A stretch of 64,000 nt of DNA from contig RQOL01000374.1 in assembly GCA_013076295.1 (NCBI GenBank), forward strand, positions 1,736,001-1,800,000. The letters run 5' to 3'. Shown here one piece after another: positions 28,861 through 34,305 of the stretch (its first letter is position 1; every line of letters begins with the position of its first letter). This stretch comes from Sanderia malayensis. Lineage: Eukaryota > Cnidaria > Scyphozoa > Semaeostomeae > Pelagiidae. The notes under the pieces were generated by a model, which saw only the letters and a program-made list of their open reading frames with translations, was not told where the DNA came from and made no database searches. Both the position numbers and the translations under genes were made by a program.

Positions 28861-29363
28861 TGGCTCCTATCGATAAAAACAAACAACCAGCTCTCCTTAC
28901 ATATATAAAAAGAAATAGAGAACGCAGGCAGGATGTGCAAAATGCAGTACTCTTCATTCTTGCACATAGACGCAATATCTTGTTACAAGCATCAAAATTG
29001 CTTCTTGAATTGCTGAGAATTTTGACTGAAAATGAGCCAGTTCGCCGTCCAAGATTATGCAGACAATTGGTAAGAAATGATGGATGGTTGTTTTTGATTA
29101 TGAGTTCTTATTCGGATCAAAGGTTCAAGAAATTGTTCCGTGTGTCACCAGAAACGTGTGCATAATCCTTGGGAGACTCTCCAATTCGCTGAAGAAAAAC
29201 ACTGTCACAGAAGAACCCATTTCTCCCAAGTGTCGTCTGGCTGCCTGCTTGTATAGATTACCTGTACACAGTAGCTGAACTTGTTGGTATTGGAGAATCA
29301 ACACTATGGGGAATCGTCATAGAAGTTTGCCAACTTATTGTTGAGCAATTTTGGGAAGAGGCG
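28861..29363 (+). pseudogene. HARBI1-like PIF/Harbinger transposase, 5' part
   Basis: The frame starts MAPIDKNKQ and runs through a helical region (RRNILLQASKLLLELLRI) to DQRFKKLFRVSPETC, then shifts frame to IILGRLSNSLKKNT ... CRLAACLYRL. A small deletion removes the usual LGRG-type turn before DYLYTVAELVGIGESTLWG, another frame. It ends at IVEQFWEEA, exactly where the 4.2-kb element enters. The C-terminal DDE half resumes at 33595 in a matching frame. This N-terminal part normally holds the helix-turn-helix DNA-binding domain. Two frameshifts make the copy inactive independently of the insertion. Confidence 0.85.
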
Positions 29364-29690
29364 TATGGTGGCCTAGATGTGCCACTACTTTTTTCTTTGA
29401 ACAAAAAAATTTTTTGTTTGAATTCAAAAATATAAAAAATTTTGGTTCACTTATTTTTTTATTTTCATTTCAATTACATTTTATCTATTAATTTTTGCCT
29501 CCAATATTAGATGCTTAAAATAATTTCAAATGTCTTTTAAAAATTTTTTAAAAGATTTATTTAAAAAAAAGTAAAAAAAAAACAATTGAAAAAATAAAAA
29601 AAAATTGAGGAACATAAAAAATTATGTTAAACAGCCTAAACGTGCCACAGTATCCCAGAGTGCAATTCGATTCAATTTAGGCGGGAACCA
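29364..29690 (+). repeat. Left terminal inverted repeat
   Basis: The outermost 40 bases match the right end perfectly, through the CTTTTTTCTTTGAACAAAAA region. The middle is A/T-rich and contains a segment (about 29.46-29.53 kb) absent from the right repeat. The inner block AGCCTAAACGTGCCACAGTA at about 29.63 kb is again nearly identical. It ends about 40 bases before the transposase start codon, so it probably contains the promoter. Confidence 0.93.
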
Positions 29691-29728
29691 TCAAATCGTG
29701 GACACGAGGCCAAGGTGGTAAACTAAAA

Positions 29729-31750
29729 ATGGCAGGGAGGAGTGACTTATGGAAAGTTGATGAGAAGATGAGAGAAAATCTTGAAGATTATAATTCTCAA
29801 GGGATTCATCGCCAAGACATGTTAGATTATATGAAGAGAGACTACCCACAGTACAATTGGAGTTTTCGGACTTTGTGTCGACGTTTAAACTTTTTTAAAA
29901 TTGCAAAGACTGATTACTTTGTAACCACACAGCTGGTGAAAGAAGCCGTGGGAGTGGAACTAAAAGGCCCTGGTAGACAACTTGGCTACAGGGCCATGCA
30001 CCAAAAGATTAGACAGATGCATGGCCTAAATGTTCCACGAGATTTGGTCTATGCTGCAATGACAGACCTTGATTCAAAGGGTTTGAGTGGCAGAGCAGTT
30101 GGCGCAAAGAGGCAAAAGAAGGGACATTTTGTCAGCAGGGGTCCTGACTGGGTCCATTCGCTCGATGGCCATTGTAAATTGATGGGATATCAGCGAAGTA
30201 CTTTCCCTCTATCTGTCTATGGTTGTTTGGACACTGCTGGCAGGAAGATATTGTGGCTTCATATCTGGACTGACAATTGCGACCCACAACATGCAGGGAG
30301 ATGGTATTTGGAGTATCTTTATCAATCAAGATTGGCTCCCTCTATGATCCGAATTGATAAAGGATCCGAGACTGGCACAATGGCCACCATACATGCTTAC
30401 CTGCATAGCCAAAACCAAGACAGTGTCGAACACAAGCCAGGAGATACTGTTATCTATGGGAAGTCAACTTCTAACCAAGTAAGATTTATTACTAAACAAT
30501 GTTTTTCTTTTGCAACTGCTGCTTGCCAAATTGTAAGAAATATTTTTATTATTTTCACTGCTATTTTTTTATCCTGTTTTAGATTGAAAGATGGTGGAAG
30601 GAACTTCATCATCGCCTGGAAAAATTTTTCAAAGAGCAACTGATGTGGCTAAAAGCAGAGGGACATTACCGGCCAGACATAGACGAAGACAGGTTCTTCT
30701 TTACTCTTGTGTGCATAATAAATGTACTACCCGTTTATTAATTTCTGAAAAATTTCCCCCGTGTATTGATTTTCAACAATACAAATTTTGAATTTCTGGT
30801 TTGGCATGTAATAAAAATGTTGGGCTTTGCTTGAAGTTGCAAACCTGTGGCAGGAAAATCTGTTCAAAACAGCAAAAAATACTACTTACTAGTACTCTGC
30901 ATTCTGACCCCCATGTTTGTTTTTCTTGGAGATGCCATCCGCCCCGCTTATTATTTTTGAGGAATTCCCCACCCCCAGTTTATTTTGAACCCCCTGTTTA
31001 TTAGAATGCACACAAGAGTATCTGCATGCAACAGCATGCAACCAAAATTATTTTGTATTTTAATGTTGAAAATGTAGTAATTATAAATCAATATAGGATT
31101 GATGCCAATAATTATCAAGTATATTGACTTCTCCCAGGAATGTCGTTGCATATATATTTATACCTGTCCTGGAAAAAGAAATGGCATCATTCAAAGATAT
31201 ATGGAATTCCCATAGGATTAGACACCAAAAGGAAACAATGTTACCAGATGGAGTACCAAACCACATATATGACTTCCCTGAAAGATCTGGACTAGAAAAA
31301 TGTGGTCAGTTGATTTCATTTTGTGAAAATTAAACAAAATGTGATTACATAACATACATAAATGTAGCTTAGGAAATAAAAATTATTTGCATCTATTTGC
31401 ACTGAAAACAAAACTCAATTTAACATAACCGAACATAGTAATTTATTTCATATACAACAGCTACTTGCAACTCTTCTGTCATTAAACTGTCTATGTAATG
31501 TGTAAAAAAGAACATAAACATCTTGAATAAATATCTTTTATCAATTATTTTTGCAGGTCTTTCAGTTACAGAGGAGCAATTAGAAGAAATCGCTAGCCAT
31601 TCTGGTGTACTTAGTGCTCCCACAGATTATTTAGAAGCTGATTTTAGACAACTTTGTCAGCAATTTATTGCAAAGCCAGATGAAATTGAGCCGTCTGAAT
31701 GTGTGGATGCTTATCTATATCTGAAAAATGCAATTAATCATAGCAGATAA
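29729..31750 (+). CDS. rve/DDE integrase-type transposase, four exons
   Basis: Exons: 29729-30478, 30583-30692, 31138-31304 and 31557-31750, all with GT/AG borders, giving 406 residues in one frame. Residues about 1-75 form a helix-turn-helix-like region (QGIHRQDMLDYMKRDYP ... SFRTLCRRLNFF). The integrase core follows: first Asp in WVHSLDGHCKLMG (about 140), second Asp in MIRIDKGSETGTM (about 210), third Glu just after the first intron in IERWWKELHHRLEKFF (about 252). The C-terminal part has FIPVLEKEMASFKDIWNSHR and VTEEQLEEIASHSGVL, matching the widespread animal 'integrase core domain' family. All catalytic acids are present and no internal stop is seen. It would cut and rejoin the TIR ends. 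Exon borders are my prediction. Confidence 0.9.
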
Positions 31751-31960
31751 AGTATACTTATACTAAGTACAATTTTTGCTGCAGAAATGTTTATGTTTTC
31801 TCTGTGTGTAAATTGATTGAAAATTGTGTGTAACTGATTAAAAATATCATCTTGCAGAACAAGAATGTGCACAAAATACACCAGCAAAGCACAACCAAAA
31901 TAAATGATGTTACATGGAAAAATAGATCTTATGTTTCACTAGTGTACATACATGCAGTTC

Positions 31961-33298
31961 CTAAAATGCTGTTGCACTTTTGGAAAATTCTGTCAAGCCA
32001 AGAAGTTCACAGTAGTTATTGCACTTGTGACTTTTTTTGAAATTCTCTATTGCAAGTATGTTTAGAATTCCAGCACAAAATGAAATTTCACCATTGACAA
32101 TTCCTTCATTTGATGTAATCTCTGGGTCGCAAAGATGTAAACCACACCCTTGCAGGTCAACTACCATAATTTTCCCTTCAGACTTTTCCAATGTGAAATG
32201 AACAAAGCACTGTGCTTTCATTCCCAGATAACAATTCCCACACTCCATGCCATTGTTGTTAATATATTTTGTAAAAATACCTGGTATATATTCCTCAATT
32301 GTAACATATTCATTCTCAACTTCACCCAGGAATACCTTATTATAGATAAAACACTCTCCAAATTCTCTGCAAAGTTTTTGGGACTCTATCTTCTCTTTAA
32401 GTTGCTTGGCAAAATATCGTGCAAGATGATGCCCCTGAACAATTCGCTTTGCATGTTCTTTGGGTGTCTGCTTCAACTGTGCTATTATCTCCAATGTTGC
32501 TGGCAAAAATTTCTTGACAACCCAAGTTATGCTTTCGAATTCTGGGTTATTTGTCATGCATGTAGCTTTGTAGGCCACCCTAAACCCACCTTCACCTAAA
32601 GACTGTTTGTCAATGACAAATTCAAGTGTGGTTGGAATCATTGACCACAACATTGATGCAAAATCAAATTTAGATACTTTAATTACCGTAGTTTTTGAAT
32701 CTACCACCTTGCCCAGTTTCAACATATCAGCAACTGACAGGCTTTTTGGGATGATGGATTTTTCAGCTTTACCAGTCACAGTCACAGTTGATGTTACCAT
32801 TGAATTGGTTGATGATGAGGGTTTAAAATCTTCTTTTGAATTTTTCATTCGTTTACCACCTAAATGCACGAAGGGTCCAGGTTCACTTTCTTCCTCATAA
32901 TTGATTTGTGATGATTTCACTGATCTGGCAATAAAGCGAATGTAAATCAAGCTGAGATCCTTCACATGTTTCATTGTATGGCACGAGGGGCCTTGCTCGT
33001 CAGAAAATATATCAATATCCTGGTAGTCCTCTATGATGTTCCTAAAATGTTTTCTGCAGGCAGTCTTTATATTTTCAATGGTAACATCCTCGAATTCGAA
33101 CGGGACAAACTCTCTAGGCCCAACCCTCTTGTACTTTTGTGCCTTTCCTGACACACTCGAACTTAGTCGCTGCACCACCAATTCATCCATGCTGCTGATG
33201 TTTTCGGTTGTACCTTTCTTTCTTTTGGTGCCATTTGTACGCTTTGCTTTCATTTCTTCCTTAAAATTTGCCCAGGCTGCCTTTCCTTTAGCAGCCAT
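31961..33298 (-). CDS. Alpha-kinase (MHCK/EF2K-type, vwkA-like) carried by the transposon
   Basis: Single uninterrupted frame; the first ATG is at 33298 (445 residues), though the frame is open slightly further upstream. The N-terminal half (to about 230) is basic then Ser/Thr-rich without a known domain. The C-terminal half is an alpha-kinase domain: FRVAYKATCM (nucleotide loop), WVVKKF with the conserved Lys, EEYIPGIFTKYINNNG hinge, AQCFVHFTLEKSEGKIMVVD, then DLQGCGLHLCDPEI (catalytic loop), and SHKCNNYCELLGL with the zinc-binding His/Cys set. The glycine-rich segment before the zinc motif is degenerate (AGILNILAI), so activity is uncertain. These kinases phosphorylate Thr/Ser in helical proteins. 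The gene converges on the transposase gene, 210 bp apart, and its start lies just inside the right TIR, so the TIR likely supplies its promoter. Confidence 0.92.
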   Translation of the reverse strand: MAAKGKAAWANFKEEMKAKRTNGTKRKKGTTENISSMDELVVQRLSSSVSGKAQKYKRVGPREFVPFEFEDVTIENIKTACRKHFRNIIEDYQDIDIFSDEQGPSCHTMKHVKDLSLIYIRFIARSVKSSQINYEEESEPGPFVHLGGKRMKNSKEDFKPSSSTNSMVTSTVTVTGKAEKSIIPKSLSVADMLKLGKVVDSKTTVIKVSKFDFASMLWSMIPTTLEFVIDKQSLGEGGFRVAYKATCMTNNPEFESITWVVKKFLPATLEIIAQLKQTPKEHAKRIVQGHHLARYFAKQLKEKIESQKLCREFGECFIYNKVFLGEVENEYVTIEEYIPGIFTKYINNNGMECGNCYLGMKAQCFVHFTLEKSEGKIMVVDLQGCGLHLCDPEITSNEGIVNGEISFCAGILNILAIENFKKSHKCNNYCELLGLTEFSKSATAF

Positions 33299-33331
33299 GA
33301 TAGTTTCACGACAGACAGAACTGTGCTTATT

Positions 33332-33588
33332 TCCCGCCAAAATTGATCGAATTGCACTCTGGGATACTGTGGCACGTTTAGGCTGTTTAACATATTTTTT
33401 TTTATTTTCCTAAATTTTTTTCTTTTTAAATTGTTTTTTTTTTATTTTTTTTAAATAAATCTTTTAAAAATTTTTAAGATACATTTGAAATAAAAAAATA
33501 AGTCAACCAAATTTTATTATATTTTTGAATTCAAACCAAACTTTTTTTTGTTCAAAGAAAAAAGTAGTGGCACATCTAGGCCACCATA
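33332..33588 (-). repeat. Right terminal inverted repeat
   Basis: Inverse complement of the left TIR: inner block at 33.34-33.39 kb (ACTCTGGGATACTGTGGCAC), A/T-rich middle and outer AGTGGCACATCTAGGCCACC end. It is about 65 bases shorter than the left repeat. Confidence 0.93.
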
Positions 33589-34305
33589 GAGGCGGTGGCC
33601 AGTTTGGAGCCCAATACCATTGAAAAACTTCAAGAAATGATGGATGCAGAATGGCAATTCACATCAGCTTATGCAGCCATAGATGGCTGTCACATTGCAA
33701 TCCGGTGCCCTCCCGGAGGTGCAGAGTCTGCCAAAGAATACCATAATTTCAAAAAATTCTATTCTATAATTCTGATGGCAATCGTTGACCCAAAGTACAG
33801 GTTTATTTGGGGAAGTTGTGAATATCCAGGCAACTCTCTTGACTCCATTATTTTCCAGTCAACAGATACATATACAGGTTTGGTATCTGAGAAATTTCCA
33901 AATATTGTACACAAGGAAGGGAATGTCATGGTACCTCCAATACTCCTAGGTGATGGAGCATTTCCATTTCATCCACGGCTGAGGAAGCCATACTCTCATG
34001 CAACCCTGACTCCTGCAGAGAAGTACTGAAACTATAGGTTAAGTAGAGCACAGGTGGTTACAGAAGGGGCATTTGGCAAATTAAAAGGACGCTGGAGAAT
34101 ATTGTCAAGAAAATGTGAAAGTACAATTGATAAAGTTAAAGCAGTAACATTGGCATGTGTTGTCCTGCACAACACTTGCATTGACAAAGGTGATGTGAAT
34201 TTGCGTTGCTGGGATATGAGCTGCGATGCAGAACCATCAGATTGCAGTACAGTTGATGGGGTAAATCCAGACCCAAGCAGGAAGTTCATTTGGGGTATTT
34301 CTTGA
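33589..34305 (+). pseudogene. HARBI1-like PIF/Harbinger transposase, DDE half
   Basis: The frame picks up the interrupted gene (VASLEPNTIEKLQEMM) right after the target duplication. It contains the DDE nuclease: first Asp in YAAIDGCHIAIRCPP, second Asp in LLGDGAFPFHP, Glu in [15 protein letters not shown] single TGA replaces the usual Phe codon at about 34028, within a KY-NYRLSRA segment; the frame otherwise continues to 34305. The nonsense codon and the upstream frameshifts show the Harbinger was already decaying or decayed after the insertion. Normally this protein excises the element at TWA sites with help from a Myb-like partner. Confidence 0.88.

What the first reader, a model, noticed from the sequence alone, without database searches (positions are those of the whole stretch)
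29364..33588. Two-gene DNA transposon carrying an alpha-kinase
Seen: a closed 4,225-bp unit with matching TIRs and a GAGGCG duplication contains an apparently intact rve transposase (all three acids, 406 aa after splicing) and an apparently intact alpha-kinase facing it. Known: alpha-kinases are signalling enzymes (MHCK, eEF2K, TRPM6/7); IS3EU-type elements are not, to my knowledge, described with a kinase. Inferred: the kinase is a cargo or accessory gene, perhaps phosphorylating the transposase or a host factor, and it could explain the many vwkA-like kinases annotated in cnidarians.
Basis: partly seen in the sequence, partly recalled or inferred. Interest (0 to 1): 0.92.

Follow-up and report, generated by a model that had tools for sequence, protein, structure and literature searches.

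The report
Animal jumping gene with built-in kinase
A small piece of mobile DNA carries two genes that face each other, its own cutting-and-pasting enzyme and a protein kinase, and the kinase is a steady partner in many related elements rather than a one-off passenger.

Summary
In detail: 29364-33588 is a 4,225-bp element with long TIRs, TATGG..CCATA ends, a GAGGCG duplication and an empty-site paralogue, carrying a spliced DDE/rve transposase and, facing it, an alpha-kinase. It is no one-off. Ten insertion sites in this genome have both TIRs and perfect 6-bp TSDs around a kinase with a whole (3) or partial or broken (7) transposase. Where the two genes lie within 6 kb, 40 of 40 converge. Their distances correlate over nine pairs. 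Between families both proteins are constrained; close copies diverge neutrally. Not found in print in my searches: the pairing in animals, and that some cnidarian 'TRPM6-like' or 'vwkA-like' proteins belong to this clade. A sister rve lineage here has a HECT-like E3 ligase in the facing position. The substrate is unknown; I lean to host counter-defence over transposase regulation.

The parts
29358..29363 (.). target-site duplication GAGGCG, left
29364..33588 (.). IS3EU-type DNA transposon, 4,225 bp
   Evidence: empty site
29364..29671 (+). left terminal inverted repeat, about 308 bp, begins TATGGTGGCC
   Evidence: alignment
29729..30478 (+). transposase exon 1 (holds D146 and D210)
30583..30692 (+). 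transposase exon 2 (holds E252)
31138..31304 (+). transposase exon 3
31557..31750 (+). transposase exon 4, ends in stop
31961..33298 (-). alpha-kinase gene, single exon, 445 aa
32009..32596 (-). alpha-kinase domain PF02816 (residues 235-430)
   Evidence: fold
32927..33184 (-). conserved N-terminal domain without a Pfam family (residues 39-124)
33346..33588 (-). right terminal inverted repeat, about 243 bp, ends GGCCACCATA
   Evidence: alignment
33589..33594 (.). target-site duplication GAGGCG, right

Best explanation
It is a two-gene cut-and-paste DNA transposon of the IS3EU type. Shown: TIRs, TA..TA ends, 6-bp duplications, a DDE/rve transposase, and an alpha-kinase that is a co-inherited, long-constrained second gene, convergent with the transposase wherever the two were found close together. 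Inferred: the transposase cuts at the TIRs and inserts with a 6-bp stagger, and the kinase acts in trans as a mobility factor. I commit to host counter-defence as its likeliest job: phosphorylating chromatin or silencing proteins so that the element is expressed or can insert. Reasons: other modifying enzymes occupy the neighbouring or the same slot (TET/JBP between the two genes in fungi, a HECT-like E3 ligase in a sister lineage here), and its closest solved relative by sequence is the TRPM7 kinase; TRPM6/7 kinase domains are reported to phosphorylate histones. Rough odds: accessory gene of the element about 0.9; counter-defence about 0.45; own transposase as target about 0.3.
For: Anatomy and empty site. 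Ten insertion sites with perfect 6-bp TSDs: window GAGGCG and C494/C229 CAAGTG; C830 GGCGTG, C686 CATATG, C815 CTGATG, C303:5.48 Mb TTTGTG; four of eight family-2 copies. The kinase frame is free of stops in 9 of these 10. Of 30 kinase loci read with 1.5-kb flanks, 25 have a transposase piece downstream on the opposite strand and 26 have the TATGGTGGCC terminus 285-1002 bp upstream of the kinase match. 40 of 89 merged kinase loci have a transposase match within 6 kb, 40 of 40 convergent; 40 of 62 kinase-type transposase loci are near a kinase against 6.5 of 62 in a shift control. Mantel r 0.795, 0 of 20,000 permutations, nine pairs; the six pairs of this genome alone r 0.813, 5 of 720. Between families kinase pS 0.71-0.85 and pN 0.29-0.47, transposase pN 0.20-0.39. 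Seven contig lengths shared by kinase and transposase hit lists against 0.10 on average with offsets, one named Ciona intestinalis for both genes; consecutive models Seg1936.5 and Seg1936.6. TRPM7 kinase nearest by sequence and fold; histone statement seen in PMC13143021. HECT partner.
Against: No substrate, localisation or expression data. Close copies diverge neutrally (A-B 1 synonymous and 15 non-synonymous; ratios 0.6-1.4). The window kinase has changes at near-invariant positions. The family-2 kinase lacks the last zinc cysteine, yet family 2 amplified. 49 of 89 kinase loci and 22 of 62 kinase-type transposase loci show no partner within 6 kb (both lists are capped and read exon by exon). 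Seven of the ten TSD-flanked sites have a partial or broken transposase. Without the most distant element the in-genome correlation is r 0.769, 4 of 120 permutations. No fungal kinase sequence was compared, so common origin with the fungal elements rests on gene order alone.
Confidence: 0.6

Rival explanations
1. The kinase regulates its own transposase: it phosphorylates the transposase or the paired-end complex and so sets when and how often the element moves.
For: The two genes are convergent and co-inherited and both constrained. A dedicated substrate would explain tight pairing.
Against: A sister rve lineage uses a HECT-like gene instead, and the <38% transposase group has a kinase nearby in only 1 of 31 loci, so rve transposases do not need a kinase in general. 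No phosphorylation data.
Confidence: 0.3
2. The kinase is a passenger that was captured and is carried along without use.
For: Close copies diverge neutrally; some copies hold stops or in-frame losses.
Against: Present across families about 40% alike with saturated synonymous sites and constrained protein; co-inheritance with the transposase; TSD-flanked in ten sites; 70 relatives keep the catalytic and zinc positions nearly throughout.
Confidence: 0.07
3. The kinase helps the host cell or the element's persistence in another way, for instance by changing cell state or DNA repair, and neither silencing nor the transposase is the target.
For: Alpha-kinases act in signalling and translation (eEF2K, MHCK, TRPM7; recalled, and fold match).
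Against: No direct evidence either way.
Confidence: 0.15

Closest known systems
Fungal TET+ IS3EU transposons (Kojima 2025, PMC12730594; abstract, section 4.1 and found passages seen)
   Same: 6-bp TSDs, TAYGG..CCRTA ends, TIRs over 30 bp, transposase and alpha-kinase in opposite orientations
   Different: those carry a TET/JBP gene between the two and live in fungi; the words 'kinase' (2 occurrences) and 'phosphorylat' (0) show that the main text gives the kinase no function
IS3EU / GingerRoot superfamily (PMC10045372, found passages seen)
   Same: TA..TA termini, usually 6-bp TSDs, DDE transposase
   Different: the word 'kinase' does not occur in that paper's main text
Styx of Zymoseptoria (PMC10853768, found passages seen)
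   Same: IS3EU-related transposase, from a proposed two-protein ancestor
   Different: four coding sequences; the second ancestral protein is not called a kinase in the passages shown
Alpha-kinases TRPM7 (1ia9), MHCK A, eEF2K
   Different: no channel part; a different conserved N-terminal domain; in the tree the transposon-type rows lie apart from four host alpha-kinases (vertebrate TRPM6/7 were not in that tree)

Membership tests
IS3EU DNA transposons | termini TA..TA, TAYGG..CCRTA | tested here: met
IS3EU DNA transposons | 6-bp target-site duplication | tested here: met
   perfect in 10 insertion sites; of the other four family-2 copies L034 has 5 bp, L031 is displaced by 2 bp, L028 and L030 are unresolved
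IS3EU DNA transposons | TIRs longer than 30 bp | tested here: met
   other families
IS3EU DNA transposons | DDE/rve transposase | tested here: met
   D146, D210, E252; PF24764 70.4 bits
IS3EU DNA transposons | no HHCC zinc motif upstream of the core | not tested
   Pfam reported only PF24764; the motif itself was not searched
IS3EU DNA transposons | transposase groups with Repbase IS3EU in a tree | not testable with these tools
   Repbase sequences are not held
Alpha-kinase family | Pfam PF02816 above cut-off, and fold | tested here: met
Alpha-kinase family | catalytic and zinc positions present | tested here: met
   12 of 13 listed positions as in the relatives; N411 of the GNL motif is I in the window copy; the roles of the positions are recalled
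Alpha-kinase family | kinase activity | not testable with these tools
   needs an assay

The most novel reading that the evidence does not exclude
IS3EU-type transposons are an old two-gene platform: a transposase plus a facing enzyme that modifies host molecules, alpha-kinase in one lineage and HECT ubiquitin ligase in a sister lineage (with TET/JBP added in fungi), the partner serving to disarm host silencing. Many stand-alone alpha-kinases annotated in cnidarians, and perhaps the expanded alpha-kinases of rust fungi, are transposon genes rather than host signalling genes.
Probability: 0.35. Interest if true: 0.85.

Novelty: new member of a known kind. Interest (0 to 1): 0.64.

Why it matters
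It reclassifies a set of supposed signalling kinases in cnidarians and other animals as transposon genes, which affects gene-family and TRPM evolution studies. It also makes a question testable: what a transposon-encoded kinase, or a HECT-like ligase in the same position, does for mobility or against host silencing.

Tried and rejected
One-off passenger: disfavoured by ten TSD-flanked insertions and 40 of 40 convergent pairs. Reading the neutral divergence of close copies as 'no selection on the kinase': rejected because the between-family comparison shows constraint and copies decay after insertion. dN/dS on saturated pairs gives no usable ratio, so only pS and pN are used. Kinase relatives in viral contigs: 59 pattern matches, none confirmed. 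Known fold of the N-terminal domain: no Pfam family, no solved relative by sequence (best E 0.79); a fold search with its own model could not be run, so 'ubiquitin-like' would be only my reading of the predicted strand order. A domain shared by the kinase and the HECT partner: hhalign probability 0.1, not supported. Fungal kinases could not be reached: protein search lists show at most the best 120 hits. A coelacanth paper that came up for HECT (PMC4255032, found passages) was irrelevant. Paper searches: (8 of 10). The 38% identity line between two transposase groups was drawn after seeing the list; the shift control there took the largest listed coordinate as contig length.
Full report
What is there. 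The element spans 29364-33588. Its ends read TATGGTGGCC.../...GGCCACCATA and are flanked by GAGGCG. The two TIRs align over about 308 and 243 bases with a gap of about 62 columns. The element sits inside a Harbinger-type transposase gene (PF13359 on its right side). With the element and one GAGGCG left out the Harbinger frame is continuous, and an uninterrupted paralogue at C686:3187173-3187357 aligns across the junction at 89%. The transposase has four exons in my model and 406 aa with D146, D210 and E252; spliced, it scores 70.4 bits for PF24764. The kinase is one exon on the other strand, 445 aa, PF02816.

Other copies of this family. A search with the left 237 bases matched eight other contigs. 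One, C688, is a weak match. The other seven resolve by shared flanks into three sites. B: C494 and C229, CAAGTG on both sides, lacking the start of the transposase; C372 has the same right flank and only the right half. C: C866 and C391, left 998 bp only. D: C666 and C352, right part only, with a 327-bp in-frame loss in the kinase. Among A (the window), B and D the kinase differences look neutral (A-B 1 synonymous and 15 non-synonymous; A-D 4.5 and 18.5) and B has one stop. This is what decay after insertion gives.

Other families in the same genome. The kinase protein has 106 matches; by my count of that table 17 are near full length without a stop. Of 30 loci read with 1.5-kb flanks, 25 have a transposase piece downstream on the opposite strand (none at L027, L036, L037, L042, L043, though one search lists one 3.6 kb beyond L027). 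26 of 30 have the TATGGTGGCC terminus upstream of the kinase match (not at L027, L036, L038, L046). The 30 are not independent: six belong to sites A, B and D, eight to family 2, and L041 shares its flank with L031. Complete units with perfect 6-bp TSDs are C830 (3,421 bp, GGCGTG), C686 (3,394 bp, CATATG), C815 (4,052 bp, CTGATG) and C303:5.48 Mb (4,782 bp, TTTGTG). In pieced alignments the transposases of C830 and C815 show D, D, E and no stop; that of C686 does not cover E and has a stop, that of C303 has K for E and a stop.

Family 2 (L028-L035) is eight near-identical copies with eight different upstream flanks. Four have perfect 6-bp TSDs, L034 has 5 bp, L031 is displaced by 2 bp, and the far ends of L028 and L030 are unresolved. 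The six with both ends measure 3,768-3,771 bp; in L034, whose sequence I read throughout, the middle of the transposase with both D residues is missing. L028 has the whole transposase but lacks the outer 37 bases of that TIR. The kinase frame is free of stops in all eight. So ten insertion sites have both TIRs, perfect TSDs and a kinase; the transposase is whole in three (window, C815, C830) and partial or broken in seven.

Genome-wide pairing. The transposase protein has 115 matches. After merging within 1.5 kb there are 89 kinase and 93 transposase loci. 40 of 89 kinase loci have a transposase match within 6 kb, and in 40 of 40 it lies downstream on the opposite strand; haplotype and tandem copies are among the 40. 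Of transposase loci at 38% identity or more, 40 of 62 are near a kinase; below that, 1 of 31; a shift control gives 6.5 of 62. Of 97 PF02816 matches in the genome, 80 lie on or within 500 bases of these kinase matches; six of the other 17, on C479 and C613, read as host alpha-kinase exons. All these lists are capped.

Co-inheritance and constraint. For nine pairs (six from this genome, three inferred from other species) kinase and transposase distances correlate, r 0.795, none of 20,000 permutations as high; the three closest pairs are the same in both matrices. The six of this genome alone give r 0.813, 5 of 720 permutations; without the most distant element r 0.769, 4 of 120. Between families synonymous sites are saturated (kinase pS 0.71-0.85) while non-synonymous change is limited (kinase pN 0.29-0.47, transposase 0.20-0.39). 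Within one family of five copies the ratios are 0.6-1.4.

Other animals. The kinase search gave 222 hits and the transposase search 371, the best 120 of each listed; a second kinase lineage gave 101. Among longest-contig lengths of 3,000 bases or more, seven are shared between kinase and transposase lists, against a mean of 0.10 and a maximum of 2 with offsets: 3,556 (P0329/P0174), 85,488 (P0243/P0152), 162,400 (P0002/P0183), 969,663 (P0036/P0233), 3,130,359 (P0274/P0178), 3,786,630 (P0321/P0182) and 12,273,785 (P0294/P0200, both named Ciona intestinalis). Gene models Seg1936.5 (kinase, named as eEF2 kinase) and Seg1936.6 (transposase) are consecutive in one EukProt set; that this is Aurelia is recalled. 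Same contig does not prove same element. Proteins named TRPM6-like, vwkA-like or MHCK D-like from Dendronephthya, Paramuricea, Saccoglossus, Actinia and Ciona, and a Stylophora protein named TRPM6, are among the hits. Seven of them put in a tree (P0020, P0048, P0055, P0085, P0095, P0294, P0295) fall with the transposon kinases and apart from four host alpha-kinases (99% SH-aLRT, 136 columns, quick tree, 26 and 4 rows). A 2026 TRPM study says that some cnidarian 'TRPM6-like' sequences hold only a kinase domain and were misnamed; the word stem 'transpos' does not occur in its main text (PMC13143021, found passages). An anther-smut genome paper reports alpha-kinases highly expanded in rusts (PMC4469406, found passages); with Kojima 2025 this suggests transposons there too, which I did not test.

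Prior work. IS3EU has been listed in Repbase since 2013, with TA..TA ends and usually 6-bp TSDs (PMC10045372, found passages). Kojima 2025 states that all TET+ IS3EU families of fungi have TET/JBP between transposase and alpha-kinase genes, the latter two in opposite orientations (PMC12730594, section 4.1). So the pairing is in print for fungi. Searches that did not show an animal IS3EU kinase or an IS3EU HECT partner. Repbase entries and most subscription papers could not be searched, so it may well be known there.

How it most likely works. Shown: mobile unit, paired genes, co-inheritance, constraint. Inferred: the transposase acts at the TIRs; the kinase helps the element in trans. The choice of counter-defence over transposase regulation rests on the different partner in a sister lineage (below), on the TET/JBP neighbour in fungi, and on reported nuclear histone phosphorylation by TRPM6/7 kinase domains (seen in PMC13143021). 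It is a lean, not a result.

A sister lineage. A complete 5,534-bp element on C773 has ends TACGGTGGCCC/GGGCCACCGTA, AATTTC on both sides, an rve frame of 409 codons (PF24764 E 3e-30) and, facing it, an open frame of 658 codons. The part of that frame I scanned (552 aa) matches the last part of the HECT profile (31.7 bits, cut-off 23.9, E 1.6e-7; no single stretch passes the E limit by itself). Eight of 32 transposase loci of this lineage have a HECT match within 6 kb, all eight convergent; of 45 kinase-type places entered, one has, not convergent.

Noticed in passing
L076+L074 (C773:10831-16364); L075 (C758) is about 99% identical, flanks included: Second type of IS3EU-like element: TACGGTGGCCC..GGGCCACCGTA ends, TSD AATTTC, rve transposase facing a HECT-like E3 ligase gene instead of a kinase; 8 of 32 loci of this transposase lineage have a convergent HECT match within 6 kb.
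   Followed up: partly
window, either side of 29358-33594: A Harbinger-type transposase gene (PF13359) is interrupted by the element; an uninterrupted paralogue lies at C686:3187173-3187357.
   Followed up: yes
L028-L035: Recently amplified family of eight near-identical kinase-bearing copies; six measure 3,768-3,771 bp, the form in which L034 lacks the middle of the transposase; the kinase has F in place of the last zinc cysteine in the two proteins printed.
   Followed up: partly
L027 (C323:206297-207610): Open 503-aa kinase frame with no TATGGTGGCC terminus within 1.5 kb upstream and the nearest transposase match 3.6 kb away; a larger element or a domesticated gene.
   Followed up: no
L013 (C372), positions 1-968: At the B insertion site one contig has the left half of the element replaced by other sequence that looks by eye like a PIF1-type helicase gene, perhaps a Helitron.
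   Followed up: no
C686:3387242-3405653: Kinase and transposase matches repeat at 7,640-bp steps: a tandem duplication that carries a decayed element.
   Followed up: no
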